Source: Sporosarcina sp. P33
GTDB taxonomy: Bacteria; Bacillota; Bacilli; Bacillales_A; Planococcaceae
Length of the DNA: 64,000 nt
NCBI RefSeq assembly: GCF_002077155.1
Contig: NZ_CP015027.1
Span: 1,280,501 to 1,344,500, forward strand
Reading direction: 5' to 3'
Numbering within the stretch: the first letter of the stretch is position 1; every line of letters begins with the position of its first letter. The position numbers and the translations under genes are program-made. This document shows, piece by piece, positions 7,843 to 63,422 of this stretch. The notes under the pieces are model-generated. The model worked only from the letters and a program-made list of their open reading frames with translations. It was not told where the DNA came from and searched no databases.

Positions 7843-7847
7843 TACTA

Positions 7848-7917
7848 TGAATACGGCGACATGCTCGCCGTATTCAAAAAAGATTGCCAGCGCAGTTCAG
7901 ACGCGGGCAATCTTTTT
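7848..7917. terminator. Double hairpin between convergent genes
   Basis: Two perfect 12-bp hairpins in tandem: 7848-7859 with 7865-7876, and 7877-7888 with 7906-7917. The second has A-tract and T-tract flanks on both strands and serves as a bidirectional intrinsic terminator for the DUF2935 gene and the usp gene. Confidence 0.85.
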
Positions 7918-8331: not shown

Positions 8332-8343
8332 ATCGGTTCCCCC

Positions 8344-9753: not shown

Positions 9754-9975
9754 AGTGTGCTCCTTTCTTGATGTTAAAGCAATTATATAAATAGCTGTTA
9801 ACAGCATACCACCTATATAAAAGATTAGAGTTATTTCCACTGTAAATCAAGAAACTATACCCATATATCACAAACAAAAAAGTTAGTCTTTCCGCCTATT
9901 TTGTAGAAAATTGGGTAAGTAAAAGGTATAGTAGAAGTAGCTAGTTTATTAAAAAGACAGAAGAGGTGATAAGTG

Positions 9976-11661: not shown

Positions 11662-11667
11662 GAAACC

Positions 11668-11697
11668 AAAAGCGTCTGCCATTGCGCAGACGCTTTT
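11668..11697. terminator. Terminator between mcp and the copper cluster
   Basis: A 12-bp stem (AAAAGCGTCTGC and its complement) with flanking A- and T-tracts lies between the convergent chemoreceptor and YdhK-family genes, and can work in both directions. Confidence 0.85.
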
Positions 11698-11704
11698 ACG
11701 TATT

Positions 11705-12298: not shown

Positions 12299-12476
12299 CG
12301 CTTCATCCCTTTAGGTTATATTTTGCCGGTCATCTTCCGGAATTTACTGAGTCCTTTCATGAATGGACTATTTTTATTCTTCCCGCGAAAATTGAGGCAA
12401 AACATATATTCAGGAAGTCCTTAAAAACTCCTTATTTACGGACTCACGCATATCCCCATTGTCAATGATCCTGCCG

Positions 12477-13985
12477 TTACTTCACTTCTATTTGCCCCAT
12501 CATGCCGTTGTCCTCATGCTCTAAAATGTGGCAATGGAACATATACACACCTTTATGCTTAAACTGTATCGCGATTTTCACTTTCTCACCGGGGTGAACG
12601 GCTATACTGTCTTTCCAGCCTCTTTCATTTTCTGCAGGTTCTGCTCCGTCTCTTGAAATGACCTTAAATTGTGCTCCGTGAATATGGAACGGATGAATCA
12701 TTCCGCCCATCATATCTTTCTTGTTGTAGATTTCCCATACCTCTGTAACACCTTGCTGCTGGGTAAAATCTATTCTATTCGGGTCAAATTTTTTCCCGTT
12801 AATTTCCACATGGTTCATCATGCCAAACAGTTCAATATGTTTAGTAACCGGCATGTTCTTTTCTTCATCTGTTACAGAAAAATCATTCAGTTGTTTTGAC
12901 GTTTGTGCAACCTCTGTTTCTTCATCTGACACTTCAAACGGCAAAAGGACGGATCCGTCTTCATTAACTAACGACACACCTTTTGATGTATCTGCCTTGG
13001 AAAAATCAACTACTATTTCTGCCCGCTCAGAAGGCGTCAGTGTCACTTCGTTCAATGTAACCGGCTCATTCAAGAAGCCCCCGTCAGTTGCGATTTGAAC
13101 GAATGAATCTCCAGTATTTAATGAAAACGTGTAGTTCCTCGCATTTGATCCGTTAAGTAAGCGGAGACGCACTTTTTCCTTCCCTACTGTTAAGAAAGGA
13201 TCTGCTGTACCATTTACTAATAACGTATCGCCTATCGTTCCGTCATCGTTCATTGCCGTTTTATAGTCTAATTGGCGCTGCTCCGTAAAGAAGCGGTCCT
13301 GGAAAATCAAAGGAATGTCATTCTTCCCGTATTCTTTAGGGATTTCTAACTTGTCCGAGTTAGCGTCTTCAATATAAATCAATCCTGCAAGACCTTTGTA
13401 CACTTGTTCTGCGGTCTTGCCTTCCGGATGCGGATGGAACCATAACGTAGCAGCCTCTTGTGTCACTTCAAACTGTATAGTTTCTTGTTCATCCGGTTTA
13501 AGTGTTTTATGGGGCCCGCCATCTGCTTCGCCGGACACTTCCAAGCCATGCCAATGAAATGTTGTCTCCTCGTCCAATTTATTTGCGGTGTGAATGGTGG
13601 CCGTCTCCCCTTTTTTCAATTGAAGAACGGGTCCTAATAAATCTCCGTTATATCCTAACGTCTCTGTCGTTATACCATCGAAAATTTCTGCTTCACCTTT
13701 TTGGGCCGTCACCGTATACTCTGTCCCGCTCGCTGCTTCACTTGTCAGTAACGGCGGAATGTTTAGTTCATTCTTTCCTGAAGAGTCTTTTAACGGCAAT
13801 ACATTATCATGACTCATATGTCCATGGCCCATTTGGGATGAGTCCATCATAGAATCGTGCATTTCTTGATTGTTTTGATGCATCATATGCTGATTAGTCT
13901 CATCCTTAGACTGCGTATCGTTGCTGCAGCCGCTTATAAGCAGTACACCCATAAGAAAAACGAAAGCTTTATTTTTAATCCTCAT
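12477..13985 (-). CDS. Multicopper oxidase lipoprotein
   Basis: A 502-residue laccase-type multicopper oxidase. It has a lipoprotein signal peptide with Cys20 in LISGC, then a Met/His-rich segment (about 33-60). All four copper motifs are intact: HWHG (144-147), HPH (184-186), HPFHIHG (431-437) and HCHILEHEDNGMM (484-496), the last giving the type 1 site with a Met axial ligand. It probably oxidises Cu(I) or organic substrates outside the membrane. GAAGGGGATAG precedes the ATG. It sits among a CcdA-like membrane protein, a YdhK lipoprotein and a two-component system, supporting copper tolerance. Confidence 0.92.
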   Translation of the reverse strand: MRIKNKAFVFLMGVLLISGCSNDTQSKDETNQHMMHQNNQEMHDSMMDSSQMGHGHMSHDNVLPLKDSSGKNELNIPPLLTSEAASGTEYTVTAQKGEAEIFDGITTETLGYNGDLLGPVLQLKKGETATIHTANKLDEETTFHWHGLEVSGEADGGPHKTLKPDEQETIQFEVTQEAATLWFHPHPEGKTAEQVYKGLAGLIYIEDANSDKLEIPKEYGKNDIPLIFQDRFFTEQRQLDYKTAMNDDGTIGDTLLVNGTADPFLTVGKEKVRLRLLNGSNARNYTFSLNTGDSFVQIATDGGFLNEPVTLNEVTLTPSERAEIVVDFSKADTSKGVSLVNEDGSVLLPFEVSDEETEVAQTSKQLNDFSVTDEEKNMPVTKHIELFGMMNHVEINGKKFDPNRIDFTQQQGVTEVWEIYNKKDMMGGMIHPFHIHGAQFKVISRDGAEPAENERGWKDSIAVHPGEKVKIAIQFKHKGVYMFHCHILEHEDNGMMGQIEVK

Positions 13986-14143
13986 TGAACTATCCCCTTC
14001 ATCTGTTGTATGTAAGTGCAGTATAGCAAGAACTTATGAAAAAACTGTGCACGCCGATGATCTATGTCTGCAATTACGCTTTGTTGCGGTATGCTCCTGA
14101 ATAGGTTTACTTGAATCTGATGTAAAACGAGCCACACTATGTA

Positions 14144-14878
14144 TCACATTCCCCAATACGTAATCGTATCAAGCAGGCCAATTGTCACTAATAGGACACC
14201 GGCTGCCCGCTGAACTATTCTTGCCGTTTTCATACTGCTTTTCATCACATGTCTTTTTGCGTCGACTAGCCAGATGAAGAAAAATAAAGCGAGCAGCGGA
14301 ATGGATGTAGCAATACCAAAAACAGCCGGCAATATAAATCCGTGCGGAGCAGTCACAGCTAAGGGCATTAACCATAAAAAAAATAAGACAAACATCGTCG
14401 GACAGAATGCCAGCGAAAAGCTGACTCCCAGCATGAAGGAACCTGCTTTTCCGTTTCTCATTTTAACGGGAACATATTGCGTGATTTTATTTAGAAAACC
14501 TAATTTCATGACACCGAGCAAAACCAATCCAGTAGCGATGATCAGCGGACCAATGAATTTGCGGAATAACGCGAAGTAACCGATTAAGGCGCTTTGAAAT
14601 GTTTCTCCCAGCCACCAAACAAGAAATCCGAGCAAGCTGAAAACGGCTGCCTTCCCTGCTATAAAAGAAGTAACTTCTGCTATATTTTCTTTTAATTGAA
14701 TGGAACGATTTCCATAAAGCGTAATGGCACTCATATTTCCAGTGAGTTGACAAGGCGCTGCAGCACCGAGCAAACCTAAGAGCAGAGCTGAAATCATCGG
14801 GCTGTTTTCGAACGTTAAGAGCAAGGTATTCACCGGCTCGGTAATGAGTTGACTTATACTCGATAATAAATTATACAA
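14144..14878 (-). CDS. CcdA/DsbD-type membrane protein
   Basis: About 244 residues with six hydrophobic segments. Two conserved cysteine positions, AAPCQLTGN and LAFCPTMFVL, lie in equivalent membrane segments. This is the pattern of the CcdA/DsbD transmembrane electron-transfer family, which moves reducing power across the membrane for thiol or copper-protein maturation. The start is uncertain: the TTG at 14878 follows AAGGAAGGTG with about 9 bases spacing, while a GTG at 14890 is too close to that site. It precedes the multicopper oxidase gene, so a role in keeping copper or cysteine ligands reduced is inferred. Confidence 0.78.
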   Translation of the reverse strand: MYNLLSSISQLITEPVNTLLLTFENSPMISALLLGLLGAAAPCQLTGNMSAITLYGNRSIQLKENIAEVTSFIAGKAAVFSLLGFLVWWLGETFQSALIGYFALFRKFIGPLIIATGLVLLGVMKLGFLNKITQYVPVKMRNGKAGSFMLGVSFSLAFCPTMFVLFFLWLMPLAVTAPHGFILPAVFGIATSIPLLALFFFIWLVDAKRHVMKSSMKTARIVQRAAGVLLVTIGLLDTITYWGM

Positions 14879-14977
14879 AGCAGCTGACACCTTCCTTATA
14901 AATCTTTCAGCGAATCTTCACCCGCTGGCAGCATCACCGGACAAGCGGGCAAACTACCCGCATACTTGTTTCCTTGC

Positions 14978-15649
14978 TCAGCTCCACTTGTATCCTATCC
15001 CCCATACAGTTTTCAGGAATTCATCATTTGGAAACTCTGCATTTTTCAATTTATCGCGCAAGTTTCGTATGTGCGAATCCACTGTCCGTATATCAGTATA
15101 CGTATTATAATCCCAGGCGGCATGCATTAATTGCTCCCTTGTTAACGTCCGCTTCGGCTGAGTGATAAGCGCTTCAATGATGTAGTACTCTTTCAGCGTC
15201 AGCTGGATACTTTTATCTTTGTAATGCAGTGAATACGAGTCGCTGTTTAACACAAAGTCACCATGTACAATATGTCCTGAATCCTCTATCGGAGCACGCC
15301 GCAAAACCGCGTTCACCCTGGCGATCAGTTCACGTTCATCAAACGGCTTCGTAATATAGTCGTCCGCCCCCGTATTCAAGCCTTTCACTAAATCGTTCTT
15401 ATCTGTCCTGGCAGTAAGCATGATCACCGGAACATCCGAAAACTTGCGTATTTCCGTACAAACTTCCCAGCCATCCATATTTGGCATCATAATATCAAGC
15501 AGCACCAAATCAACCGGCTCTTCCTGCAATCGTTCCAGTCCCTCCGGCCCGTTAGTCGCCTTTATGCAACGAAACTCTTGCGGTTCCAGAAACAATTCCA
15601 GTAAATCCAACATTCTGTGTTCGTCATCTATAAGTAAAATTGTTCGCAT
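14978..15649 (-). CDS. OmpR-family response regulator (copper-type cluster)
   Basis: A 223-residue response regulator with a receiver domain (acidic pair IDDE; phospho-acceptor Asp52 in LVLLDIMMPNMDG; conserved Lys in TKPFD) and a C-terminal winged-helix DNA-binding domain ending in VWGIGYKWS. The ATG at 15649 follows GGGGTG; a TTG 5 codons upstream is less likely. It follows the sensor kinase gene by 18 bases and precedes the CcdA-like gene, so kinase and regulator probably control the whole cluster in response to copper or envelope stress. Confidence 0.9.
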   Translation of the reverse strand: MRTILLIDDEHRMLDLLELFLEPQEFRCIKATNGPEGLERLQEEPVDLVLLDIMMPNMDGWEVCTEIRKFSDVPVIMLTARTDKNDLVKGLNTGADDYITKPFDERELIARVNAVLRRAPIEDSGHIVHGDFVLNSDSYSLHYKDKSIQLTLKEYYIIEALITQPKRTLTREQLMHAAWDYNTYTDIRTVDSHIRNLRDKLKNAEFPNDEFLKTVWGIGYKWS

Positions 15650-15667
15650 CTGCCTGCACCCCAATCA

Positions 15668-17026
15668 TCAGATTGTAATTATGAATGTACTGCCTTTTCC
15701 TGCTTCACTTTTTACTGTAATCGTTCCGCCATGTGCTTCAACGAGTTCTTTTACAATCGCCAATCCTAATCCCGAGCCCCCAAATGCTCTTGAGCGTGAT
15801 TTTTCCACACGATACAACTTATCAAAGATCCTGTCGATTTCATTAGATGGAATCCCCATTCCTTCATCCGTTACTGACAAAACCGTCTGCTGCTGCTCCT
15901 GATAAATTTCCAATGTGACTGTCGTCTGCTCATCCGAGTATTTCAATGCGTTATCCAGTAAATTCAGTACGATTTGTTCTAATCGAATTCGATCGGCAAC
16001 TAGCTGAAAATCCTCTTTACAGCTCATGACCAGCCTGATTTTTTTCATGTCAAACGACGGAGCCATGAGGCGGTTCATATCCTCGATAAATTCTTGTGCT
16101 GAAAACTGGCTTCTCGTTACCGTGAATGTGACTTCATCCATTTTTGCCAGTTCCATCAAATCTTTGACTAAGTCCTTCATGCGATTGGATTCTTCTGCAA
16201 TAATCTGCAAATAATGATTCCGCTCCCCGTCAGACAATTCTTCTCTCATCGCCACTTTCAAATATCCGATTAAGTAGGTAAGCGGTGTGCTTAATTCATG
16301 AGAGACAGATGCCAAAAATTCATTGCGTTCCGTTTTCATTTTTTCCAGATCTGTTGCCAATTTCATAATAGCCGCTGATAATTCTCCCAGTTCATCATTG
16401 CTTGCCCCTGGAAGACTCACATCAAATTTTCCTTCACTCAGCCTTTCTGTCGCTTCCTTCATGCGAATCAGCGGCCGGGTAAGAAACTTCGACAGAATGA
16501 AGTAAATAATAAATAAAATTACGATACTAACTGAGCCTGCCAATCCAAAATGCAGATTTAACTTTTGAACCAGCATTTCAATTGGCTGGCTGCTCTGAAA
16601 CATCACAACATAGCCCGATTGGCCTGCGCCAGCTTTATAAGGGTGGACACTTGCGATGAAGGGTGAATTCTTCCAGTCCGTCACTACTATCCGATCTGTT
16701 TCATCATTTTTGCTAATTAGTGATAAAGCGGATGAAAAGTTCTCTAGGCTGTCAGCTGAGCTGCTGATGATTTCACGTTTCTCATCTGTAATAATGACTT
16801 CCCTTTCTTTTCCCGTTTCCATTAATACAATGTGTGCTATCGTTTTATCGGAATAATAATCTTCCAGCACATCACGATGATTGCTGCCGCTCGCAAGCAG
16901 CCGTGAATATTCTTCATCCACCCTTGCGTGAATAATATTTTGATGCAAATAAATCATTAATACCGATTCAAGCAGCAAGAAAATGATAATAAAAGAAGCC
17001 GCTAGCTTTGTTGAGATTTTATTCAT
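15668..17026 (-). CDS. Sensor histidine kinase (copper-type cluster)
   Basis: A 452-residue membrane sensor kinase with TM1 near residues 8-28, an extracytoplasmic domain of about 120 residues, TM2 near 150-170, a HAMP domain, HisKA with the phospho-accepting His in SVSHELSTPLTYL, and an HATPase domain (NALKY, DEGMGIP, GGSGLGLAI). GGGGTGG lies 5 bases before the ATG at 17026. It is the first gene of the minus-strand cluster, and kinase-before-regulator order is less common than the reverse. The stimulus is inferred from the copper-related downstream genes. Confidence 0.9.
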   Translation of the reverse strand: MNKISTKLAASFIIIFLLLESVLMIYLHQNIIHARVDEEYSRLLASGSNHRDVLEDYYSDKTIAHIVLMETGKEREVIITDEKREIISSSADSLENFSSALSLISKNDETDRIVVTDWKNSPFIASVHPYKAGAGQSGYVVMFQSSQPIEMLVQKLNLHFGLAGSVSIVILFIIYFILSKFLTRPLIRMKEATERLSEGKFDVSLPGASNDELGELSAAIMKLATDLEKMKTERNEFLASVSHELSTPLTYLIGYLKVAMREELSDGERNHYLQIIAEESNRMKDLVKDLMELAKMDEVTFTVTRSQFSAQEFIEDMNRLMAPSFDMKKIRLVMSCKEDFQLVADRIRLEQIVLNLLDNALKYSDEQTTVTLEIYQEQQQTVLSVTDEGMGIPSNEIDRIFDKLYRVEKSRSRAFGGSGLGLAIVKELVEAHGGTITVKSEAGKGSTFIITI

Positions 17027-17127
17027 TAAACCACCCCGTAAATACAGTATAGGAAAAGAATATGAAAAAATTATGCAGACGGACTTGTAGGAATACAGGC
17101 CAGCTGTCATATCTTAGCCATAGAAAA

Positions 17128-17160
17128 AGGATGCCCGACTCTGAACTTCCCGGACATCCT
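17128..17160 (-). terminator. Intrinsic terminator of exonuclease gene
   Basis: An AGGATG-CCG stem with one A/C mismatch, followed on the minus strand by TTTTT, sits 10 bases past the exonuclease stop codon. Confidence 0.65.
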
Positions 17161-17169
17161 GATCGATTG

Positions 17170-17742
17170 TTAGAACCTCGTTTTTGCAGGTTTCTTCATC
17201 GGCGACTTATTCATCAAATAAGAAATGAACGTCTCCTCCGTAAGATGAGGATTTGATGAATTCAGCAGAACCGCCAGATTCTTTGCATCATCCAGCGCTC
17301 TGTGGGCGTTATGCACCTGAATCCGGTGCGCTCTCAACAGCTGCTGCAGCTTGCCATTTTCAAACCCGTAGTTCTTCCATTTGATTTGCCTGACAGAGCA
17401 ATACCAGTCCATGTCGAGCGTTTCAGGCAATAACCGGCTGACAAATCCCCGGTCGAATGACGCATTATGCGCGACAATCCCGTCAGCCCGGTCTAGTATT
17501 GTCAAAATTTTATCCATATCCAAAGACTTGCCTCTTACCATCTGATCTGTAATACCTGTCAGGTTCGTAATAGTTGGTGATATGGAATAGAAAGGTTCCT
17601 GAAACTCGCAGTATTCATCAGCTACCCTGACTATACGATGATCTTCATACTCCCCGAGCATAACGCCCAGCTCGATCACTTCACTTGCTTCTGCACTCAT
17701 CCCTGTCGTTTCTACGTCAATGAACGCTATATGTTTTGTCAT
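17170..17742 (-). CDS. DnaQ-like DEDDh 3'-5' exonuclease
   Basis: A 190-residue single-domain exonuclease of the DnaQ/epsilon superfamily. Exo I is FIDVETTG (Asp9, Glu11), Exo II is IVAHNASFDRGF, and Exo III is HRALDDAKN with the DEDDh His. It removes nucleotides from 3' ends using two metal ions. The target is unknown; it resembles stand-alone proofreading-type exonucleases of Bacillales. AAAGGAG precedes the ATG. It is a single-gene unit with its own terminator. Confidence 0.9.
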   Translation of the reverse strand: MTKHIAFIDVETTGMSAEASEVIELGVMLGEYEDHRIVRVADEYCEFQEPFYSISPTITNLTGITDQMVRGKSLDMDKILTILDRADGIVAHNASFDRGFVSRLLPETLDMDWYCSVRQIKWKNYGFENGKLQQLLRAHRIQVHNAHRALDDAKNLAVLLNSSNPHLTEETFISYLMNKSPMKKPAKTRF

Positions 17743-17888
17743 GTAAAAAACTCCTTTACACTCTATTTAAAACCGTGTACCCGCGCGGTTCAGAATCATT
17801 TGTATCCTATTAGTATATCAGCATTTCAGCGCATTGTATGCGAATTAAACTGGACGACAGCCAGTACAATCTGGTTTATATGCATAAG

Positions 17889-17917
17889 TTGCGAGATAAA
17901 TCGGCGTATTGTATACT
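17889..17917 (+). promoter_or_regulatory. Promoter of the TPP-riboswitch operon
   Basis: A -35 box TTGCGA (17889-17894) and -10 box TATACT (17912-17917) with 17-base spacing lie directly upstream of the riboswitch. Confidence 0.7.
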
Positions 17918-17934
17918 AGGACTGCTTACATAAT

Positions 17935-18032
17935 TGTCCGTACGGGTGCTTGAGTGAATCAGGCTGAGATTGCAGGTAAAGCCGCTGCTGACCGTTTATC
18001 TGATCTGGGTAATGCCAGCGTAGAGAGCATGT
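17935..18032 (+). ncRNA. TPP riboswitch (THI element)
   Basis: The conserved thi-box sequences are present in order: the pyrimidine-sensor strand with GGCTGAGAT near 17962, ACCG near 17991, and CTGATCTGGGTAATGCCAGCG at about 18000-18020. It stands between a sigma-A-like promoter and an intrinsic terminator, ahead of a thiamine/HMP ECF transporter. It should switch the operon off when thiamine pyrophosphate is abundant. Confidence 0.95.
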
Positions 18033-18066
18033 TCGATGGAATATACAGGGATCATTTCCTTCCACG

Positions 18067-18093
18067 GCCGTCTGCTCTTCAGACGGCTTTTTT
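18067..18093 (+). terminator. Riboswitch expression-platform terminator
   Basis: GCCGTCTG pairs with CAGACGGC across CTCTT and is followed by six T residues. Its position just after the TPP aptamer marks it as the transcription-termination output of the riboswitch. Confidence 0.9.
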
Positions 18094-18123
18094 GTATAGA
18101 CAAATGAGAAGGAGTGAAAGATC

Positions 18124-18693
18124 TTGAAGAAGTTAAAATTTACCGATTTACTGATTACGATTATGATTGGCGTAGTATTTGGTATTCTCATGAAGTTTTG
18201 GGACGACCTATACACTGTCGTTAAACCGATCATGCCCGTGCTGCGTCAGCTGATTTACGGCATGTGGTTTATGGTCGGGCCTTTCGCTTTCTTACTGTTG
18301 CGAAAGCCGGGAACCGCATTAATTGCCAGTATTGCGGGTGCGTCATTATCTGCTTTTGCAGGTCACGGCATCGAAGTGCTGATCTACGGGTTTGCGCAAG
18401 GTCTTGCCGCGGAATTACTGTTTGCTGCTTTCCGCTATAGAAGCTATTCTGTTTTGACAGCTGGACTGGCGGGAGTCGCATCTTGCCTGGCCAGTTTTGG
18501 ACTCGACTTGATTTACGGCTACGCTGCGCTTGAAACATGGGCATTGATTGTGAAATACGGATTGCGGGCAATCAGCGCATTTATATTTACCGGTATCTTT
18601 GCTGTGCTGATTGTCAAAGCTCTTGAAGCAACAGGTGTAACTTCATTAATACGGCCAGTTGATAAAAAAGAATATTCATTGCTGGACGAGTAA
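18124..18693 (+). CDS. ykoE: YkoE-type S component of thiamine/HMP ECF transporter
   Basis: A 189-residue membrane protein with five to six hydrophobic segments, recognised as YkoE, the substrate-binding subunit of a thiamine-precursor (hydroxymethylpyrimidine) ECF transporter. The start is a TTG at 18124, fixed by AAGGAG at 18109-18114 with 9-base spacing. It is the first gene of a TPP-riboswitch operon, followed by the ATPase and T components, and ends 21 bases before the ATPase start. The cytoplasmic YkoF partner found in B. subtilis is absent from this operon. Confidence 0.9.
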   Translation: MKKLKFTDLLITIMIGVVFGILMKFWDDLYTVVKPIMPVLRQLIYGMWFMVGPFAFLLLRKPGTALIASIAGASLSAFAGHGIEVLIYGFAQGLAAELLFAAFRYRSYSVLTAGLAGVASCLASFGLDLIYGYAALETWALIVKYGLRAISAFIFTGIFAVLIVKALEATGVTSLIRPVDKKEYSLLDE

Positions 18694-18714
18694 TTGCAGA
18701 GGATGGATTCTACT

Positions 18715-20166
18715 ATGAGTAACATCAGCGTCTCAGATTTACGATTAAAGTTTCCCGGAGAAGAATCATTGGTATTCAGGGATCTGTCTTTCTCCGTACA
18801 GCCGGGCGAAAAGGTCCTTATGCTGGGACCTAGCGGCTGCGGCAAATCCACCCTGCTGCAAGTGCTGAGCGGTATTATTCCAAACTCCATTGAATTGCCG
18901 ATGAAGTCAAAGGCTATCAGTTTGCCGGATTCATGGGGGTTCGTCTTTCAGGATCCTGATACGCAGTTCTGTATGACGTATGTCGACGAAGAATTGGCAT
19001 TTGTACTGGAGAATCTGCAAGTGCCGCGGGAACAAATGAAGACTCTCATAGAACAAGTGCTGAAACGTGTAGATTTGCAGCTGGAAGATCCGCATACAGC
19101 GATTAATGAACTATCCCAAGGAATGAAACAGCGGCTCGCTTTGGCTTCCGTTTTACTGCTTGAACCGGACGTTCTATTCCTTGATGAACCGTCTGCTTTA
19201 CTGGATCCCGAAGGCACACAGCAAATTTGGTCTTCTATTAAAGAGGCGACTGCCGAGAAAACAGTACTCATTGTAGAACATAAAATTGATCTGATTGCCG
19301 ATTGGGTCGATCGCGTCGTACTATTCAATGATCACGGCGTTATTCTGGCTGACGGATCACCCGCCGACATTTTTTCCGGCTATCAGGAGGAGCTGACCCG
19401 CTACGGCATATGGTATCCCGGTGTATGGGAAAAATATAAGGAATCGGAAGCTTTTCTTTCCTTAATGCAAAACCGCAGTCAAGTGAAGCCGCAAGAGAAA
19501 ATTCTTCTCCAAGATTTCCACGGGTATCGGGGTGCCGTACAAAAGATTTCCGCTGAAGATGCAACAGTTCAGGAAGGTGACTGGATTGCGATTGTCGGGG
19601 AGAACGGCTCAGGGAAGAGCACGCTGCTTCTGTCGCTTATGCAATTATTGCGAACTGACGGGATCTACGAAGTAAACGGTGTGCCGATTGTGCAGAAAAA
19701 GAAGAAACGGCAGCTTCCAGAAGGATTATCACTCGTCTTTCAAAATCCTGAACTGCAATTTGTGACGAACTCGATTGCTGAAGAACTGACGGTTTCGCTG
19801 CATGGCATGACAAAAGAGGATGCGGCAAGCTGCGCCAGGAATTTAATCGATTTATTCAACTTGCCTGGCACAGCTTCACGTCATCCTTACCAGTTATCTA
19901 CCGGACAAAAACGCCGCTTGAGCGTGGCGACTGCGCTTACCCCGAAAACAGATATCGTATTGCTGGATGAACCGACGTTTGGACAAGATGCACGGAATAC
20001 ATTTGCTATTCTGGAGAAATTGGAGAAATTGCGGACTGAAGGTATTACGATTCTGATGGTGACACATGACATGGAAATCGTGGAGAACTTCGCTACCGCC
20101 GTGTGGACTGTGGAAAACGGAGTATTGAACCCCCCTGCTGTTACAGGAGGTCTGCTAAATGCTTAA
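18715..20166 (+). CDS. ykoD: YkoD-type double ATPase of ECF transporter
   Basis: An energising subunit of 483 residues with two fused ABC ATPase domains. Walker A motifs are GPSGCGKST and GENGSGKST, signatures are LSQGMKQRL and LSTGQKRRL, and Walker B motifs are VLFLDEPSALLD and IVLLDEPTFGQD. It powers the YkoE/YkoC transporter. The ATG at 18715 is preferred, since AGAGGATGGA lies upstream at a workable distance; TTG (18694) and ATG (18703) are alternatives. The end overlaps the ykoC start by 8 bases, indicating translational coupling. Confidence 0.92.
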   Translation: MSNISVSDLRLKFPGEESLVFRDLSFSVQPGEKVLMLGPSGCGKSTLLQVLSGIIPNSIELPMKSKAISLPDSWGFVFQDPDTQFCMTYVDEELAFVLENLQVPREQMKTLIEQVLKRVDLQLEDPHTAINELSQGMKQRLALASVLLLEPDVLFLDEPSALLDPEGTQQIWSSIKEATAEKTVLIVEHKIDLIADWVDRVVLFNDHGVILADGSPADIFSGYQEELTRYGIWYPGVWEKYKESEAFLSLMQNRSQVKPQEKILLQDFHGYRGAVQKISAEDATVQEGDWIAIVGENGSGKSTLLLSLMQLLRTDGIYEVNGVPIVQKKKKRQLPEGLSLVFQNPELQFVTNSIAEELTVSLHGMTKEDAASCARNLIDLFNLPGTASRHPYQLSTGQKRRLSVATALTPKTDIVLLDEPTFGQDARNTFAILEKLEKLRTEGITILMVTHDMEIVENFATAVWTVENGVLNPPAVTGGLLNA

Positions 20167-53385: not shown

Positions 53386-54867
53386 CTATCTGCGTCTTAT
53401 TTTTTCACTGCCCAGCGCCTTCATCAGCGATATGACCATAAGCAGCATGACGAATGAAAATGGCAGGGCAGCGATAATGATCGTATTTTGTAAAGCGGAC
53501 AGGCCTCCGACTGACAACAAGATCAATGCAATGGATGATTGAAGTATACCCCAAATAATTTTCACACTCGCAGGCGGCGTCAGCGATCCATATGTCGATT
53601 GCATCCCCAGCACAAATGTTGCCGAGTCCGCACTAGTCACAAAGAATGATGCGATCAGCAGAATAGCTATAACGGAAATGATAAATGACCACGGCAACTC
53701 ATGGAACATTTCAAAGACTACCAGCTCTGTCGAAGAACTTGCGATATCCGCAATTCCGCTGCGCTGCATATCAACTGCAGTCGTACCGAATGCGGAGAAC
53801 CAGAATGCACAAAGTAATGTTGGAGCTAAAAGTACGCCAACCATGAACTCACGGATCGTACGTCCTTTTGAAACACGTGCGATGAACATGCTGACGAATG
53901 GCGCCCATGAAATCCACCAAGCCCAGTAGAAAATTGTCCAATCGAACAGCCATTGCTGGTGCTCTTCATTGAGCGGTGCCGTACGAAGACTCATTTGGAT
54001 CAAATTTCCTGCGTAGCCCCCAAGAGATTCAGTGAACATATTCATGATCAGCAGTGTCGGTCCTAAAATAACGACAAACGCAAGAAGCAGGACAGCAAGC
54101 ACCAAATTTGTGTTGGATAAATACTTGATGCCTTTGCTCAGTCCTGACCACGCAGATATGATGAACAGAACGGTAACAACAGCAATAATGATAAATTGGG
54201 AGAACGTTCCGATTTCAAACCCAAACAGATAATTCAGCCCTGCATTAATTTGAACAGCACCGAAACCGAGAGTTGTTGCCACACCGAAAGCGGTAGCAAA
54301 GACTGCAAGAACGTCTACCAGAATCCCCCATGGGCCATCCATTTTCTTGCCAAAGATCGGTTTCAATGTTGCTGAAATTAAACCAGGTGAATCTTTACGA
54401 AACTGGAAATACGCAAGTGATAAAGCAATGATTCCATACATTGCCCACACATGAAGTCCCCAGTGGTAAAATGATGCGCGCAGCCCTTCCTTAAATGCTT
54501 CATCCGTATTTGGATCTTCTGTTGCGGGATTAATGAAATGCGACAGCGGTTCAGCTGCTCCGTAGAAAACCAGCCCGATCCCCATTCCTGCTGAAAACAG
54601 CATAGCAATCCAAGTAACTGTAGAAAATGCAGGTCTGTCGGTATCTTTACCAAGTCGAATCTTTCCGTACGGACTAAAAATCAGAAAGATGCTTAATAAT
54701 AAGAGTGCGGAAAGCAAAAGGAGGTAGTACCATCCAAAAGAAGAGGCGACAAAATTCTTCGCATTCACTGTAATTTCCTCAAAACTTTCCGATGCAAACA
54801 CACCGTAACCGACCGTGACGATGATTAATGCAATCGTAATGTAAAATACATTTGATATTTTTCTCAT
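53386..54867 (-). CDS. BCCT transporter, glycine-betaine type (OpuD-like)
   Basis: A 493-residue betaine/choline/carnitine transporter with 12 membrane segments. The glycine-rich TM3 stretch SAGMGIGLVFYGAAEP and the aromatic signature WTIFYWAWWISWAPFVSMFIARVSKGRT are both canonical for glycine-betaine uptake (OpuD/BetP group). The C-terminal tail is short, so strong osmosensing of the BetP kind is not evident. GAAAGGAGAAAC precedes the ATG, and a sigma-A promoter lies about 50 bases upstream. It is a single-gene unit. Confidence 0.9.
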   Translation of the reverse strand: MRKISNVFYITIALIIVTVGYGVFASESFEEITVNAKNFVASSFGWYYLLLLSALLLLSIFLIFSPYGKIRLGKDTDRPAFSTVTWIAMLFSAGMGIGLVFYGAAEPLSHFINPATEDPNTDEAFKEGLRASFYHWGLHVWAMYGIIALSLAYFQFRKDSPGLISATLKPIFGKKMDGPWGILVDVLAVFATAFGVATTLGFGAVQINAGLNYLFGFEIGTFSQFIIIAVVTVLFIISAWSGLSKGIKYLSNTNLVLAVLLLAFVVILGPTLLIMNMFTESLGGYAGNLIQMSLRTAPLNEEHQQWLFDWTIFYWAWWISWAPFVSMFIARVSKGRTIREFMVGVLLAPTLLCAFWFSAFGTTAVDMQRSGIADIASSSTELVVFEMFHELPWSFIISVIAILLIASFFVTSADSATFVLGMQSTYGSLTPPASVKIIWGILQSSIALILLSVGGLSALQNTIIIAALPFSFVMLLMVISLMKALGSEKIRRR

Positions 54868-58324: not shown

Positions 58325-58639
58325 TCTCCTTAATCCATACTATTTTAATATGCATTGTAACATATAGAATGAAATAAAGAAATGAATTGTTTGAAAACTC
58401 TAAACATCCTATTCACTCACGTTTTTGCAATTCAAAAGATGATTGTAAAGTACAGTATATGGTAACTGCCGAAATGAAGCGCCACATTTTGTAACTAAGT
58501 GATCGCTGATGCTTTGAGGCAACTAGATCAAAGAATAAACCTCCTCATCAAATTAGATTGATCAGGAGGCTTGCTTTTTTTATTGCAATTTTAAAATGGT
58601 TCTGCAATTACGATCACTTGACACAGATCTGATTACATT
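58325..58639. other. Intergenic region between osmC-like and BCCT genes
   Basis: About 315 bases. It holds an imperfect 12-bp hairpin at 58540-58569 (CCTCCTCATCAA with one mismatch), followed on the plus strand by a T-run and on the minus strand by a weaker T-tract. This is the likely terminator of the BCCT operon. No other feature was recognised. Confidence 0.5.
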
Positions 58640-60235
58640 TTAACGAATACTCTTTACTTCCTCCCCAATCGTCTTAGGGGCATCTTCTGCTACTTCACCT
58701 GTCTCCGTATGAAACTTTGAGATATTTTCTGCTGACATACTCCCAAAGTCCTTCACCATCCAGCGCACCCAGCCAACGGCCATTATTGCCATAATGAGGA
58801 CAACAGGAACACCCGTAATGATGGCACTTGTTTTTATTGTATTTAAATCTGCGCCTATAAATATCATTGTCAGAGGTACAACTGCAAGCATTACACACCA
58901 AAATAATCGGTGCAGCGGATGCGGCTCTTCATTTTCCCCGAGACCCGGCGTAGCTGTGGATGCCATAGTAAACGCGGCTCCATCCAGAGTCGAAGCCAAA
59001 AACAGAACAGAAACGACTGCAAACAATACCATGAAAACACCACTGAGAGGCAATGTTTTTAGAACTTCAATAATGGCGGCGTTATCATTTCCGCCAGCTA
59101 GCATTCCAACCATATCGACTTTACCGCTCATCTGACGGTCAATAGACAGGCTGCCGATGACGCCGAAAAAGAAGAAACATCCTACACTGCCGCTGATTAG
59201 CGTATTCAGAATGACCGAACGTAATGTGCGGCCTTTCGATACTTTCGCAATGAATATTCCAGTAAACGGTGCATACGTTATCCAATACAGCCAGTAGAAA
59301 ATGGTCCAAGACTGCGGAAATCCTGACTTGCCGATTGGATCAGTGAACAAGCTCATCTGCACGAAGTTTTGCATCATCTGTCCAAGCGCATTCGTACTGT
59401 TTGCAATAATAAACAATCCCGGGCCTACAATAATAATACCAATACAAAACAGTATAGCCAGTTTGGTCGTCATGTCAGAAATCCGTGCCATTCCTTTTTG
59501 CAAACCTATATAGGAACTTAATGAATAGATAACCGATATCATTAGAATTAATAGCAAATTCATCTTAAATGAAGGTGTAAGACCCAGTACATTACTTAAT
59601 ACTGCAGATACTAAGGGTACGGAAACACCTAATGTAATACTTAGACCGCCAAAACAAATGAAGATGAACATAATATCTACAATTCTTCCGATGACACCCT
59701 TTTGCTTGATGCCAGTAATAGAGCTGACAATTGCGCTCAAGCTAAGCCCTTTGTTTTTTCGTACATAAAGGTGGTAACATATCGGCAGACCGACTAATGC
59801 ATACAGTGTCCAAGCACTGACTCCCCAATGGAACATATTGTAAGGCAAAGCCATTTCAAACGCCCGCTGTGATCCGGGCTCAATACCGAGGCCCGGTGTA
59901 TCAATATAATAAGCCCATTCGATAAATGCCCAGTACACTGTAGCTGAACCTAATCCGCAGGCAATCATCATAGAGATCCATTTAAAATTAGTATATTCAG
60001 GCACTGTGTTGCCTAAACGAATATTCCCGTATTTACTGACAGCCACAAACCCAAGTAACAGGATACCCAAAAACGTAAAGATCAGCGTGCTGGAACCGAA
60101 CCATTCAGTCAACGAGCCAAAAATACTATTGGCTGCCTGCTGAGACTCTTCAGGCTTTACGTACAAGAAACCTACAATACTTAATACAAGAGCCAAACTC
60201 AAAGTGATCAGCAGCGTATCTATTTTCTTCGTCAT
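58640..60235 (-). CDS. Divergent BCCT-family transporter
   Basis: A 531-residue BCCT carrier with 12 membrane segments. The TM3 glycine stretch is GLGSATVYWAFIEW and the TM8 aromatic signature is WTIFYWLYWITYAPFTGIFIAKVSKGRT, both departing from the glycine-betaine type (here the box has Tyr in place of two Trp). This suggests a different quaternary-amine or related substrate, possibly carnitine-like. The ATG at 60235 is preferred, about 7 bases after GGGGA. It is the last gene of the GntR/enolase-superfamily operon, 26 bases after the first enolase-superfamily gene. Confidence 0.87.
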   Translation of the reverse strand: MTKKIDTLLITLSLALVLSIVGFLYVKPEESQQAANSIFGSLTEWFGSSTLIFTFLGILLLGFVAVSKYGNIRLGNTVPEYTNFKWISMMIACGLGSATVYWAFIEWAYYIDTPGLGIEPGSQRAFEMALPYNMFHWGVSAWTLYALVGLPICYHLYVRKNKGLSLSAIVSSITGIKQKGVIGRIVDIMFIFICFGGLSITLGVSVPLVSAVLSNVLGLTPSFKMNLLLILMISVIYSLSSYIGLQKGMARISDMTTKLAILFCIGIIIVGPGLFIIANSTNALGQMMQNFVQMSLFTDPIGKSGFPQSWTIFYWLYWITYAPFTGIFIAKVSKGRTLRSVILNTLISGSVGCFFFFGVIGSLSIDRQMSGKVDMVGMLAGGNDNAAIIEVLKTLPLSGVFMVLFAVVSVLFLASTLDGAAFTMASTATPGLGENEEPHPLHRLFWCVMLAVVPLTMIFIGADLNTIKTSAIITGVPVVLIMAIMAVGWVRWMVKDFGSMSAENISKFHTETGEVAEDAPKTIGEEVKSIR

Positions 60236-60261
60236 ATACATTCCCCATTTTTTATAGTATG

Positions 60262-61383
60262 TTATGAATTTATGCGGTACTTCGAAATCAATTCCTCATC
60301 CAATTCCACGCCCAGGCCAATACAATCCGGAACACGAATGTTACCGTTTTCAAGAGCGGGCAAGCTACCTGTTAAACTAGTGAAGAGCGGACTGTCGCTT
60401 TGAGAATACTCCAGTAAATCACCGTCTTTAGAAGCAGCCAGAAATTGAATAGTTGCTGCCAGCAAAATGCCAGTGCTGAAACCATGCGGCACAAGTTTAG
60501 TGCCATTCATCGAAGCGAGTTCAGAGATTTTTCTCATCTCGCTGATTCCGCCGCAGCGGGTTATATCCGGTTGTATGATATCTGGCTGTGCATATTTCAG
60601 GAAGTCCGCAAACTCATAGCGGGTAGTTAATGATTCGCCGCCGGCAGTTTGGGCGCCCGTTAAACCGGACAGTTTTTTATAGCCTTTCATATCATCTGCC
60701 AGTATCGGTTCTTCAATCCAATGAAGATTGAACTTCTCCAGGCGCTTAAACATTCTTGCAGACCTTCCGTATGTGCCCCATTTAGAAGCCAGGTCGATCT
60801 GAAGTTCAAAATCATCGCCCGCCTCTTCCCGGACAGCCTTTACAATTTCAACATCCGTATCGTCATCATCGCCAAGAATTCCGCCGCCAAACTTTAAGCT
60901 TGTGTAGCCCTGCTCAATTAACTTTCTCACAATCTTTTTGTTTTGAGCGGGAATGTCGTCCGGTATAAACGTCCCGTACGCCTTAATAGTATCCCGATAC
61001 TTTCCGCCAAGCAGCATGTAAATTGGCACTTGATAAAACTGAGAAGCAATATCCCATAGTGCAATATCAATTGCACTGATAGCATGGATACCCGCTCCTC
61101 TTCTCCCCAAGTAATTAGAACCCCAGTACATCTTGTCCCAAAGCTTTTGGATTTCCAAAGGATTTTCCCCAATCAGCAAGGACTTCAAGCCAGTACTGTA
61201 TAAATTAGAGCTGGGTGCTTCAATGATTGCTCGGGCAACCATGGGAGACGTGTCACTTTCTCCAATACCGACTAGTCCAGTGTCCGTGATCACCCGGACA
61301 AGAAGAGCGTCCTCTCCCCATGTGCACTCCTGATCAATCGGAGGGACGCGCAGTTCAATTACTTCTATATCTGTTATTTTCAT
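60262..61383 (-). CDS. Enolase-superfamily enzyme, mandelate-racemase subgroup
   Basis: A 373-residue enzyme with an N-terminal capping domain and a C-terminal TIM barrel. The expected active-site set is complete: Lys164 (SLKFGGG), metal ligands Asp197 (QIDLASKW), Glu224 (WIEEP) and Glu250 (AGGES), and the Asp273 (QPDITRCGG)/His300 (PHGFSTG) dyad. Members abstract a proton alpha to a carboxylate, acting as racemases, epimerases or acid-sugar dehydratases. AAGGCGG precedes the ATG. Its place between a second superfamily member and a BCCT carrier points to metabolism of an imported betaine-like acid. Confidence 0.88.
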   Translation of the reverse strand: MKITDIEVIELRVPPIDQECTWGEDALLVRVITDTGLVGIGESDTSPMVARAIIEAPSSNLYSTGLKSLLIGENPLEIQKLWDKMYWGSNYLGRRGAGIHAISAIDIALWDIASQFYQVPIYMLLGGKYRDTIKAYGTFIPDDIPAQNKKIVRKLIEQGYTSLKFGGGILGDDDDTDVEIVKAVREEAGDDFELQIDLASKWGTYGRSARMFKRLEKFNLHWIEEPILADDMKGYKKLSGLTGAQTAGGESLTTRYEFADFLKYAQPDIIQPDITRCGGISEMRKISELASMNGTKLVPHGFSTGILLAATIQFLAASKDGDLLEYSQSDSPLFTSLTGSLPALENGNIRVPDCIGLGVELDEELISKYRINS

Positions 61384-61487
61384 TGGTGATTACCGCCTTT
61401 TTCAAATGAACTTCAACATACACTATTACCGGCTTTTATGTAATGTACAAACCTACAGACAGCAGTACTCTCGCCCATGATGAACGG

Positions 61488-61519
61488 CACTGCAGGGCTA
61501 ATTTTGCCCTGCTGTACTG
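61488..61519. repeat. Hairpin between the two enolase-superfamily genes
   Basis: CAGGGC/GCCCTG arms with flanking partial pairing around TAATTTT, in the 145-base gap inside the operon. There is no T-run, so it may be a processing or stability element. Confidence 0.4.
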
Positions 61520-61528
61520 CTTCCGGAT

Positions 61529-62659
61529 TTATTCATTATGCATACATGTAATCTGATGAATCGCAGTCCTCTCAATCAGCGGCCAATCCATTTCAATCCC
61601 AAGTCCATTACCTTCAGGGGCATGTACATATCCTTTTTCGTCTGTTCGGATAGGATTTTTCGCGCCAAATTCCAATGGTTCGACAGGCACGGCCTGCTCA
61701 AAGAATAAACAATTTGGTGCAGCCAGCATCAGGTGCAGATTGGCAGCTTGGGAAAGTGTATAACCCCAAGATTGCAATTCCGCCGTCATAGAATTCGCCT
61801 CAGCAAGTGCCATGATTTTTTTCGTTTGCGTGACACCACCCGCCAACGTGGCATCAACTCGCACGCTAGACCAGCTGTCCTGTTGAATTCCCTGCTCAAT
61901 TTGATTCAGATGCAGCAGTGTATTTCCTGCCGGGATAATCGGAATATTCACCTTCGTTCTTAACTCCTGATAACCCTTCAAATCTGTATCCGGCAATGGA
62001 GCCTCGAACCAAACATACCCAAGACGCTCCAATTCAATTGCCACTTTGAGCGCTTCCTGTCTCGTATAAGAACTTTCCACATCCAACATAAACTTTAATC
62101 CGGACCCTTGGAATTCTTTCTCGATTGCATAGACCAGCGCCAAATCTTCCTCCGCTTTGCACCATGTATGAAACTTAATGTATCGGTAGCCTTGCATTTT
62201 AAGGTCATGCACATGTTCGATATAGTCTTCTATGCTCGGCAGAAAAGGCGTACTGGCATAGGACAGAATCTTATCCCTTGCCCCTCCAAGCATCTGATAC
62301 AGCGGCATTTGCGCATATCTTGCGGCAAGATCCCATAGTGCGATATCAATAGGCGACAGTGCCTGCGGTGTCATTTGAACACATCGGCTGGCCAGCAATT
62401 GATAGATTTCCTCCCGCTGTAAAGCTGATTTGCCAATCAAAAAGGGCAGTAAGTGACGGATTGATTCTGCCAGACTTAAATCGGCATTACCTTCTGTCCA
62501 GGATATCGCTCCTCCGCATCCCTCGTAGCCATCCTTTGTCCGTATTCTTACAATTGTATTTGTAATCGTCAGATCAGAGTAATGGGAGGATGTTTTGTAT
62601 TTCGCTTCCGGCGTCTCCACGACATAGACTTGCACGTCGGCTATTTCAAGCTTCTTCAT
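61529..62659 (-). CDS. Enolase-superfamily enzyme with altered active site
   Basis: A 376-residue member with the same two-domain layout but a different active site. The second strand has Lys162-x-His164 (YIKFHTW), metal ligands Asp193 and Glu219 are kept, the third ligand position is Asn246 (IIPAGNTLL) rather than Glu, Asp269 is kept (VRVDATLAGG), and the usual PHG histidine is replaced (ELQSWGYT). It may use a different metal geometry and catalytic base. GAGGAGAAG precedes the ATG, 21 bases after the GntR gene. The substrate is unknown. Confidence 0.85.
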   Translation of the reverse strand: MKKLEIADVQVYVVETPEAKYKTSSHYSDLTITNTIVRIRTKDGYEGCGGAISWTEGNADLSLAESIRHLLPFLIGKSALQREEIYQLLASRCVQMTPQALSPIDIALWDLAARYAQMPLYQMLGGARDKILSYASTPFLPSIEDYIEHVHDLKMQGYRYIKFHTWCKAEEDLALVYAIEKEFQGSGLKFMLDVESSYTRQEALKVAIELERLGYVWFEAPLPDTDLKGYQELRTKVNIPIIPAGNTLLHLNQIEQGIQQDSWSSVRVDATLAGGVTQTKKIMALAEANSMTAELQSWGYTLSQAANLHLMLAAPNCLFFEQAVPVEPLEFGAKNPIRTDEKGYVHAPEGNGLGIEMDWPLIERTAIHQITCMHNE

Positions 62660-62680
62660 ATAATCTTCTCCTATTCTTCT

Positions 62681-63337
62681 TTAATTCAGCAAATAGACAT
62701 CAGGAATATTCGTATCAATAATATGCTTTTGTAAGGCCTCCGCTGCCACATTTATATCTTCAGCTGTAATCAGGATATCTACCAGTTCTTCATGTTCTGT
62801 CAGCCATTTTTCCAATGTCCCTGACTTGCTGTTTTGATAAACAAAATGTAAACGGATTCTGTGCACGATGCTTTCCCAAACTCTGATTACATTTTCCATT
62901 TCGGAAGCGGTTACAATTAATTCATGCAGCTGGATATCTAATTCGATAAAAGTCAGTAAATCCTCGTAATTAGCAGCCTTCCTCATATCTTCTACAATTC
63001 TTTTAAATGTTTCTTTATATTTTTCTCCCCAATTTTCAAACCCTTTTTTCAATGCATATGTTTCAATTTGAACACGCATAGGGAGAAGAAGTTCTACCAC
63101 TTCCTCCTGTGAGATCGTGGCGACCCTTGTGTCTTTATAAGGCGACGAAATTAAAAGCCCTTCTAGTTCCAGCAGCAAAATTGCCTCCCGGACAGAAGTC
63201 CGGCTGACCCCTAAATCCTGTGCTAAACGATTCTCAGTAATTTTCTCCCCCGGGACTAGCTTTCCTTCGTATATTAAATTCCGAATCTCTTGTGCTATTC
63301 GATGCTTTAATGAAAACTTCGACAAATCTTTATTCAT
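62681..63337 (-). CDS. GntR/FadR-family transcriptional regulator
   Basis: A 218-residue regulator with an N-terminal winged helix (ENRLAQDLGVSRTSVREAILLLELEGLL, about residues 35-62) and an all-helical C-terminal FCD domain with metal-binding-type Asp/His positions (LDIQLHELI). It is the first gene of the operon with the two enolase-superfamily genes and BCCT carrier, and it probably represses its own operon. AAGGAGTGATGGC precedes the ATG. FadR-type ligands are usually small organic acids, fitting the downstream genes. Confidence 0.9.
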   Translation of the reverse strand: MNKDLSKFSLKHRIAQEIRNLIYEGKLVPGEKITENRLAQDLGVSRTSVREAILLLELEGLLISSPYKDTRVATISQEEVVELLLPMRVQIETYALKKGFENWGEKYKETFKRIVEDMRKAANYEDLLTFIELDIQLHELIVTASEMENVIRVWESIVHRIRLHFVYQNSKSGTLEKWLTEHEELVDILITAEDINVAAEALQKHIIDTNIPDVYLLN

Positions 63338-63369
63338 GCCATCACTCCTTACTCTCGACTCTTTGTCTG

Positions 63370-63381
63370 ATTGTCGACAAT
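63370..63381. promoter_or_regulatory. GntR-type operator candidate
   Basis: ATTGTCGACAAT is a perfect 12-bp palindrome of the TTGT-N2-ACAA form usual for FadR-group regulators. It lies about 12 bases downstream of the -10 box and about 33 bases upstream of the GntR start, a position suited to autorepression. Confidence 0.65.
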
Positions 63382-63393
63382 GTACATGTTTTG

Positions 63394-63422
63394 ATTATAG
63401 AGTCTGCTTTTCATTTTGTAAA
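63394..63422 (-). promoter_or_regulatory. Promoter of the GntR/enolase/BCCT operon
   Basis: Minus strand TTTACA (63422-63417), 17 bases, consensus TATAAT (63399-63394). Confidence 0.8.

What the first reader, a model, noticed from the sequence alone, without database searches (positions are those of the whole stretch)
58640..63422. GntR - two enolase-superfamily enzymes - BCCT operon: candidate new catabolic pathway
Seen: four same-strand genes with short gaps, one consensus promoter and a palindromic GntR-type operator. Known: BCCT carriers import betaines, choline or carnitine; enolase-superfamily enzymes act on carboxylates by alpha-proton abstraction, and one known example, HpbD, epimerises hydroxyproline betaine. 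Inference: a quaternary-amine carboxylate is imported and epimerised or dehydrated by two different enzymes. No demethylase, CoA ligase or dehydrogenase of known betaine pathways is nearby, so the route does not match one I know.
Basis: partly seen in the sequence, partly recalled or inferred. Interest (0 to 1): 0.72.

Follow-up and report, generated by a model that had tools for sequence, protein, structure and literature searches.

The report
Mobile two-enolase transporter operon, substrate unknown
A small set of bacterial genes that moves between species (a regulator, an importer with an aromatic cage for charged methylated molecules, and two different enolase-type enzymes) looks like a compact, still unassigned route for consuming a carnitine-like compound, and in several lineages of anaerobic bacteria one of the enzymes appears to be replaced by an unrelated dehydratase.

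Summary
Four same-strand genes (GntR/FCD, EnoA, EnoB, BCCT; 63337 down to 58640) in a Sporosarcina genome lie behind a near-consensus promoter and a palindrome, ATTGTCGACAAT, whose 10-base core is exact in 7 of 8 aligned upstream regions. The module is real and mobile: EnoB lies beside BCCT in 16 of 17 loci; the loci span five phyla and include two plasmids.

New here: (1) Seven EnoB loci lack EnoA; six of the seven genomes carry instead a two-subunit UxaA/GarD-family dehydratase, directly behind BCCT in five. None of nine EnoA genomes has a close copy. (2) EnoB keeps only the His/Asp base, EnoA only a His at the opposite-face position; neither shows a racemase's two bases. (3) All 17 EnoB-linked BCCTs replace one cage tryptophan by tyrosine; 54 of 54 alignable background BCCTs keep it.

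Best reading: an onium (carnitine-like) hydroxy acid is imported and dehydrated to a 2-keto acid by two lyases of opposite face preference. The substrate is unknown; 2,3-dihydroxy-4-trimethylammoniobutanoate is a guess. HpbD-type epimerisation is disfavoured. I found no assigned function for the nearest crystal structures, 3SJN and 4JHM.

The parts
63394..63422 (-). promoter-like site, TTTACA-17-TATAAT
   Evidence: 11 of 12 matches; TTTAC(A/T) boxes recur upstream of GntR in L012-L017 and L036
63370..63381 (.). operator-like palindrome ATTGTCGACAAT, followed by a GACAA half-site
   Evidence: 10-base core exact in 7 of 8 aligned upstream regions, one mismatch in L036; single copy in the window. 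Also exact in Arthrobacter L025 at 7215, inside the ORF as called but before the ATG (about 7266) that fits the family's start
62681..63337 (-). GntR-family FCD-type regulator, presumed repressor responding to the substrate
   Evidence: PF00392 and PF07729; 66-82% identical orthologues in L012-L017
61529..62659 (-). EnoA, enolase superfamily; K162-x-H164, D193/E219/N246 at the metal-ligand columns, D269, Q296 in place of the dyad His, E321
   Evidence: nearest structure 4JHM, Z 49.7, rmsd 2.1, 374 aligned, 43%
61420..61520 (-). hairpin-forming spacer between EnoA and EnoB
   Evidence: -32 kcal/mol, z -1.95, 10 of 200 shuffles as stable: weak
60262..61383 (-). EnoB, enolase superfamily, MR type; K164-x-G166, ligand columns D197/E224/E250, dyad D273/H300, E325
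   Evidence: nearest structure 3SJN (Spea_3858), Z 54.6, rmsd 1.5, 372 aligned, 66%
58640..60241 (-). BCCT transporter, YeaV/CaiT-like, with Tyr in place of the Trp at CaiT position 323
   Evidence: probable start at 60235
58520..58590 (-). terminator-like hairpin after BCCT
   Evidence: -21.7 kcal/mol, z -3.95

Best explanation
A substrate-induced, horizontally transferred catabolic module. The GntR/FCD protein represses its own operon from the conserved palindrome until a ligand binds (inferred). The BCCT imports a small zwitterion with a quaternary ammonium or sulfonium group and a carboxylate that carries at least one hydroxyl (cage residues shown; substrate inferred). EnoA removes the alpha-proton with His164 and eliminates the beta-substituent, most likely hydroxide, giving a 2-keto acid; in several anaerobe lineages a two-subunit UxaA/GarD-family protein does the same job (replacement pattern shown; reaction inferred). 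EnoB, with its only acid/base His on the opposite face (H300/D273), does the same to the other alpha-epimer or acts on a neighbouring step (inferred). The 2-keto acid, or the pyruvate-like product after loss of the amine, enters central metabolism, which would explain why no further enzyme is needed in the operon (inferred).
For: Linkage: EnoB beside BCCT in 16 of 17 EnoB loci (13 of 14, plus L036, L037, L046); the 17th, L020, is cut inside EnoB. EnoA beside EnoB in 10 of these 17 and in the window. A close EnoA is missing from 6 of 14 genomes searched (best 32% identity); the seventh EnoA-less locus, L046 (G800), was judged by neighbourhood only. Of these seven genomes six carry a UxaC 52-100% identical to L018's (100% is the query itself), while in nine EnoA genomes the best is 34%. 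UxaN/UxaC lie directly behind BCCT in five (L118, L119, L120, L122, L123); in the sixth, UxaN ends the contig behind BCCT (L023) and UxaC lies on another contig (L121). UxaC keeps four Cys aligned with those of E. coli UxaA; PMC6336799 (passages) says that the family's four conserved Cys are absent from SuyAB. Active-site columns: 12 of 12 EnoA have His/Asn/Gln; at the same columns the 19 EnoB-set rows have Gly (18) or Ala (1), Glu (19) and His (19). Cage: W142, W147, Y150, W324, Y327 (CaiT numbers) kept in 17 of 17; W323 is Tyr in 17 of 17 and Trp in 54 of 54 alignable background BCCTs. Operator conservation.
Against: No substrate, activity or induction data. L022 has EnoB and BCCT but neither a close EnoA nor a UxaC in its genome, and Vibrio pTHAF190c_b has an EnoA homologue and a BCCT with a FAD oxidoreductase and no EnoB beside it, so the pair is not obligatory. 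EnoA has Asn at the third metal-ligand column and Gln for the dyad His in 12 of 12, which could also mean quite different chemistry. The base assignments rest on alignment columns and on recalled mandelate racemase chemistry. In DddT, loss of the tryptophan that I map to CaiT W324, which is kept here, raised transport, so cage residues do not all count alike. Some EnoA-less genomes are MAGs and may be incomplete.
Confidence: 0.5

Rival explanations
1. Sequential pathway: EnoB first isomerises or epimerises the imported compound and EnoA (or UxaN/UxaC) then dehydrates it.
For: EnoB is the constant partner and EnoA or UxaN/UxaC the exchangeable one.
Against: At the second KxK column EnoB has Gly in 18 of 19 rows and Ala in the 40% outlier, so a two-base epimerisation has no obvious second base; L022 has EnoB without either partner.
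Confidence: 0.25
2. HpbD-like betaine epimerisation (hydroxyproline or proline betaine), with demethylation encoded elsewhere.
For: The BCCT has the onium cage.
Against: The residues at the two base positions are not those of an MLE-type epimerase (HpbD's lysines are recalled, no HpbD sequence was aligned); the conserved module holds only the regulator, the two enzymes and the carrier; the exchange with a UxaA/GarD-family protein.
Confidence: 0.06
3. Acid-sugar or 3-sulfolactate use, with the BCCT recruited for an anion.
For: The nearest HMMs are sugar-acid dehydratases; Desulfovibrionales carry the module.
Against: Cage residues kept in 17 of 17 BCCTs; four Cys present in UxaC, which the cited paper says sulfolactate lyase lacks; the putative sulfolactate importers named for Taurinivorans are TRAP and TTT types (PMC10507020, passages).
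Confidence: 0.12

Closest known systems
Spea_3858 of Shewanella pealeana (PDB 3SJN, EFI-500646) and the Pseudovibrio protein 4JHM
   Same: Nearest solved relatives of EnoB (66%, Z 54.6, rmsd 1.5, 372 aligned) and EnoA (43%, Z 49.7, rmsd 2.1, 374 aligned); the printed alignments show the same K-x-G with D/H, and K-x-H with Asn and Gln
   Different: Structure entries without an assigned function in their titles; one search for their names found no relevant paper; their gene neighbourhoods were not examined
Mandelate-racemase-subgroup acid dehydratases (galactonate, gluconate, arabinonate, rhamnonate)
   Same: Fold, metal-ligand columns and His/Asp dyad of EnoB
   Different: Below every curated NCBIfam cut-off (EnoB 195 of 311 bits at best; EnoA 120.7 of 550); coupled to a BCCT
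Hydroxyproline-betaine epimerase HpbD pathway (recalled)
   Same: An enolase-superfamily enzyme acting on an onium carboxylate is the shared idea
   Different: Different residues at the base positions, no demethylases in the module
CaiT / YeaV carnitine-type transporters
   Same: BCCT family and cage; YeaV model 591 bits
   Different: W323 is Tyr; CaiT R262 is Thr, Asn or Ala
UxaA/GarD dehydratases and SuyAB
   Same: The anaerobes' UxaN and UxaC are a SAF domain and GD_AH domains (L018) on two chains
   Different: Distant from the GarD model (140 of 731 bits); four Cys kept, unlike SuyAB as described in PMC6336799

Membership tests
BCCT transporter | PF02028 above its cut-off | tested here: met
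   428 bits against 27
BCCT transporter | aromatic cage for the onium group | tested here: met
   W142, W147, Y150, W324, Y327 kept; W323 is Tyr, still aromatic
CaiT-type sodium-independent antiporter | Arg at CaiT 262 (role recalled; only the title of the arginine paper was seen) | tested here: not met
   Thr in the window; Thr, Asn or Ala in the 17
MR-subgroup dehydratase (EnoB) | D/E/E metal ligands, His/Asp dyad, Glu electrophile | tested here: met
   D197, E224, E250, D273, H300, E325, each in 19 of 19 rows
MR-subgroup dehydratase (EnoB) | curated NCBIfam cut-off of a named dehydratase | tested here: not met
   195 of 311 bits at best
MR-subgroup dehydratase (EnoA) | acidic third metal ligand and dyad His | tested here: not met
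   N246 and Q296 in 12 of 12
HpbD-type betaine epimerase | two opposed lysines as acid/bases (recalled; no HpbD sequence was aligned) | tested here: not met
   second KxK column Gly or His, sixth-strand column Asp in both
HpbD-type betaine epimerase | activity on hydroxyproline betaine | not testable with these tools
   needs an enzyme assay
GntR/FCD regulator | GntR helix-turn-helix plus FCD domain | tested here: met
UxaA/GarD dehydratase (anaerobe partner) | four conserved cysteines | tested here: met
   Cys of L018, L019 and L046 align with E. coli UxaA C132, C166, C199, C264; the paper's own reference protein was not aligned and its spacing differs somewhat (39/35/68 against 24/31/67)
Sulfolactate sulfo-lyase SuyAB | lack of those cysteines (PMC6336799, passage) | tested here: not met
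   cysteines present; no SuyB sequence was aligned

The most novel reading that the evidence does not exclude
The module is a pathway for stereoisomers of 2,3-dihydroxy-4-trimethylammoniobutanoate (anthopleurine, a 2-hydroxycarnitine): the Trp-to-Tyr change lets the carrier tell it from carnitine, the two opposite-face dehydratases turn the two alpha-epimers into one 2-oxo-4-trimethylammoniobutanoate, and trimethylamine then leaves by easy beta-elimination, which would be a trimethylamine source in gut clostridia that uses none of the trimethylamine-forming enzymes I know of. Sulfonium analogues would fit equally.
Probability: 0.1. Interest if true: 0.75.

Novelty: new variant of a known kind. 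Interest (0 to 1): 0.52.

Why it matters
It gives two long-solved but, as far as my searches show, unassigned enzyme structures (3SJN, 4JHM) a shared context, a transporter signature and a set of compounds small enough to test. It also offers a natural experiment: apparently the same step done by an enolase-superfamily enzyme in some bacteria and by an unrelated UxaA-type protein in others. If the substrate carries trimethylamine, carriers such as Clostridium asparagiforme would make it of medical interest.

Tried and rejected
Sulfolactate and sulfonates: considered because the anaerobe partner is split like SuyAB and because Desulfovibrionales carry it; lowered by the four cysteines and the onium cage (the same passage of PMC6336799 also mentions an unpublished two-chain L-fuconate dehydratase, so a split does not mark SuyAB). 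Carnitine itself: the module holds no other enzyme, and UxaA-type chemistry needs an alpha-hydroxyl (recalled). DMSP lyase: possible by chemistry, but it does not explain a UxaA-type partner. Tartrate, glycerate: no onium group. Hydroxyectoine: thought of, not tested. Psychrobacter carnitine plasmid paper PMC6514802 (passages): 'enolase' and 'racemase' do not occur in its main text. A. baumannii carnitine paper PMC11353897 (passages): no enolase. PMC7246345 and PMC9795676 (passages): background on the superfamily only.

Literature listings: enolase superfamily with betaine and epimerase terms (6 papers); enolase superfamily, BCCT, carnitine, any two (20 of 150 listed, none of the 20 holding 'enolase superfamily'); D-carnitine with dehydratase, crotonobetaine, enolase (3); sulfolactate with BCCT (1); mandelate racemase with BCCT (1, by title unrelated); 3SJN, 4JHM, Spea_3858 (1, a palladium chemistry paper); galactarate dehydratase and enolase terms (10); sulfolactate, SuyAB, UxaA (19 of 20 listed); anthopleurine or serine betaine (7); hydroxycarnitine (12 of 17 listed). 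By their titles and abstract starts none describes this system; I read passages of eight papers only, and the library lacks most subscription journals. Anthopleurine appears once as a mass-matched name in a table of a gnotobiotic-mouse urine metabolome (PMC4484351, one passage), which is no identification.

HpbD is not among the 50 entries listed by either structural comparison; that says nothing for or against. Shewanella and Pseudovibrio neighbourhoods were not reached.

The test rejecting a single UxaN/UxaC clade (p-AU 0.0008) named its group, which included L022, after the tree was seen.
Full report
What is there. On the - strand of the window the order is GntR/FCD (62681-63337), EnoA (61529-62659), EnoB (60262-61383), BCCT (58640-60241). 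The window lies in a 3.24-Mb single-contig genome of the genus of Sporosarcina cascadiensis (L012 and the same-genus genome G168 give the match at the same coordinates and identity). A promoter-like site (11 of 12) and the palindrome ATTGTCGACAAT precede GntR; a stable hairpin follows BCCT. The window's flanking genes (LiaF-like, OsmC-like, EamA) lie outside the block that the relatives share; outside that block their ORFs fall into no shared cluster that follows the module.

The module recurs. A genome scan with EnoB gave 14 loci (it depends on short peptide patterns, so it is not a census). In L012-L017 (Sporosarcina, two Psychrobacillus, Peribacillus, two Psychrobacter) the order is GntR-EnoA-EnoB-BCCT, with identities to the window of 66-82, 76-80, 76-85 and 73-86%. 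Arthrobacter (L025) and, on a short contig, Paenarthrobacter (L024) have BCCT-EnoB-EnoA. A Psychrobacter urativorans plasmid (L036) has the first order and a Pseudomonas MPC6 plasmid typed as conjugative (L037) the second. The 17 loci span Bacillota, Pseudomonadota, Actinomycetota, Thermodesulfobacteriota and Spirochaetota (names); in the last the EnoB contig breaks off before any BCCT. In the EnoB tree the Psychrobacter rows sit inside the Bacillaceae rows (98/100 for the six rows together, 92/91 for Peribacillus with Psychrobacter), which indicates transfer. The module is rare: EnoB in 4 of 261 genomes of the window's family (E to 1e-80), 2 of 397 of the family of C. asparagiforme (E to 1e-90), and at E to 1e-80 in 2 of 247 (order of Mailhella), 1 of 369 (class of Psychrobacter), 2 of 80 (genus Psychrobacter), 1 of 7 (order of the Spirochaeta) and 3 of 197 (family of Arthrobacter, one of them at 40% identity); these groups include the query loci themselves.

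The exchangeable partner. In Clostridium asparagiforme, a Lachnospiraceae MAG, Clostridiales COT073 and a Desulfovibrionales genome (L018, L019, L023, L046) a sigma-54-type regulator lies upstream of EnoB-BCCT, divergent in the first three and on the same strand in L046. BCCT is followed by a 112-124-residue UxaN protein (a SAF-domain protein in L018) and, in three of the four, a UxaA/GarD C-terminal protein (UxaC); the contig of L023 ends behind UxaN and that genome's UxaC is at the edge of another contig. The Spirochaeta and Mailhella genomes, whose EnoB contigs break off, have BCCT-UxaN-UxaC on another contig. A close EnoA was not found in six of 14 genomes searched (G800 was not in that search). 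UxaC at 52-100% identity occurs in six of the seven EnoA-less genomes; in nine EnoA genomes the best is 34%. The exception is L022, which has neither. On the EnoB tree the partner label needs at least three changes, and the Spirochaeta EnoB (UxaC type) groups with Sporosarcina (EnoA type) at 93/91, so the swap may have happened more than once. EnoA and UxaN/UxaC are thus most simply two solutions to one step. The UxaA/GarD-family enzyme studied in PMC6336799 abstracts the alpha-proton and eliminates the beta-hydroxyl (passages), and four cysteines of the kind which that paper says SuyAB lacks are present; so the step is more likely a dehydration than a desulfonation.

The enzymes. By HMM rank EnoB stands nearest galactonate, gluconate/galactonate and arabinonate dehydratases (195, 191 and 190 bits), far below the cut-offs; EnoA nearest mannonate and talarate/galactarate dehydratases (121 and 120 bits). 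AlphaFold2 models (mean pLDDT 85.7 for EnoA, 88.2 for EnoB) align best with 4JHM (Z 49.7, rmsd 2.1, 374 aligned) and 3SJN (Z 54.6, rmsd 1.5, 372 aligned), well above the next rows at 41.3 and 45.7. At the column of mandelate racemase's second KxK lysine (recalled) EnoB has Gly (Ala in the 40% outlier) and EnoA His; at the dyad-His column EnoB has His and EnoA Gln; the third metal-ligand column is Glu in EnoB and Asn in EnoA (12 EnoA and 19 EnoB-set rows). So each keeps one of the two faces. That fits two stereo-complementary lyases better than a racemase; it is an inference from columns, not from a structure with ligand.

The carrier. Against CaiT the residues W142, W147, Y150, W316, Y320, W324 and Y327 are kept in 17 of 17 EnoB-linked BCCTs, while W323 is Tyr in 17 of 17 and also in the Vibrio BCCT beside an EnoA homologue, where Y320 and Y327 are Phe. 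Of 60 BCCT loci drawn from the classes of Psychrobacter and of the window (the 30 loci returned by each, not all matches), two are the system itself (Tyr), four could not be aligned there, and the other 54 have Trp. The DddT residue that I map to it, W320, is one whose loss impairs DMSP transport, whereas W321A raised it (PMC13270143, passages). The cage argues for an onium substrate, the Tyr for one that differs from carnitine or betaine.

What it does. Two enzymes, one carrier and one regulator travel between phyla without any other shared gene, so the product should be met by ordinary metabolism; 2-keto acids are such products. I commit to an onium 2-hydroxy or 2,3-dihydroxy acid dehydrated from both alpha-epimers (0.5), with a sequential scheme as the main rival (0.25). 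Which compound it is remains open; 2,3-dihydroxy-4-trimethylammoniobutanoate satisfies the cage, the alpha-hydroxyl and the beta-hydroxyl, but that is reasoning, not data.

Comparison. Every part belongs to a known family; the combination, the carrier signature and the enolase-to-UxaA exchange were not found described in the searches listed under Tried and rejected. Hence 'new variant of a known kind'.

Noticed in passing
window 53386-54867 (-): A second BCCT that passes the curated cut-off of the glycine-betaine uptake model (652 of 650 bits), with Trp at the CaiT 323 column: an ordinary osmolyte carrier.
   Followed up: partly
L050 (Vibrio sp. THAF190c plasmid) 9832-14809: Variant cluster: GntR, FAD-dependent oxidoreductase (PF12831), EnoA homologue (45%), BCCT with the same Trp-to-Tyr change; no EnoB beside it, and the plasmid is not among the EnoB hits at E 1e-60.
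   Followed up: partly
L022 (Lachnospiraceae UW_DM_LCO1_1) 8965-19663: EnoB and BCCT without a close EnoA or UxaC in the genome; an ORF that I read as transposase-like (no family search) lies just upstream and glycoside-hydrolase and MFS genes follow. Possibly a degraded copy.
   Followed up: no
L037 (Pseudomonas MPC6 plasmid) 1-18708: Next to the module lie another BCCT, a membrane dipeptidase, an aldehyde dehydrogenase and flavoproteins with partial matches to sarcosine-oxidase and glycine-oxidase models: perhaps an amine-catabolism island.
   Followed up: no
G000:C1:1157896-1159374: The window's genome has a further BCCT 38% identical to the operon's, not examined.
   Followed up: no
window 61384-61528: 145-bp EnoA-EnoB gap with a possible hairpin and no T run after it; could be an RNA processing or stabilising element.
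   Followed up: partly
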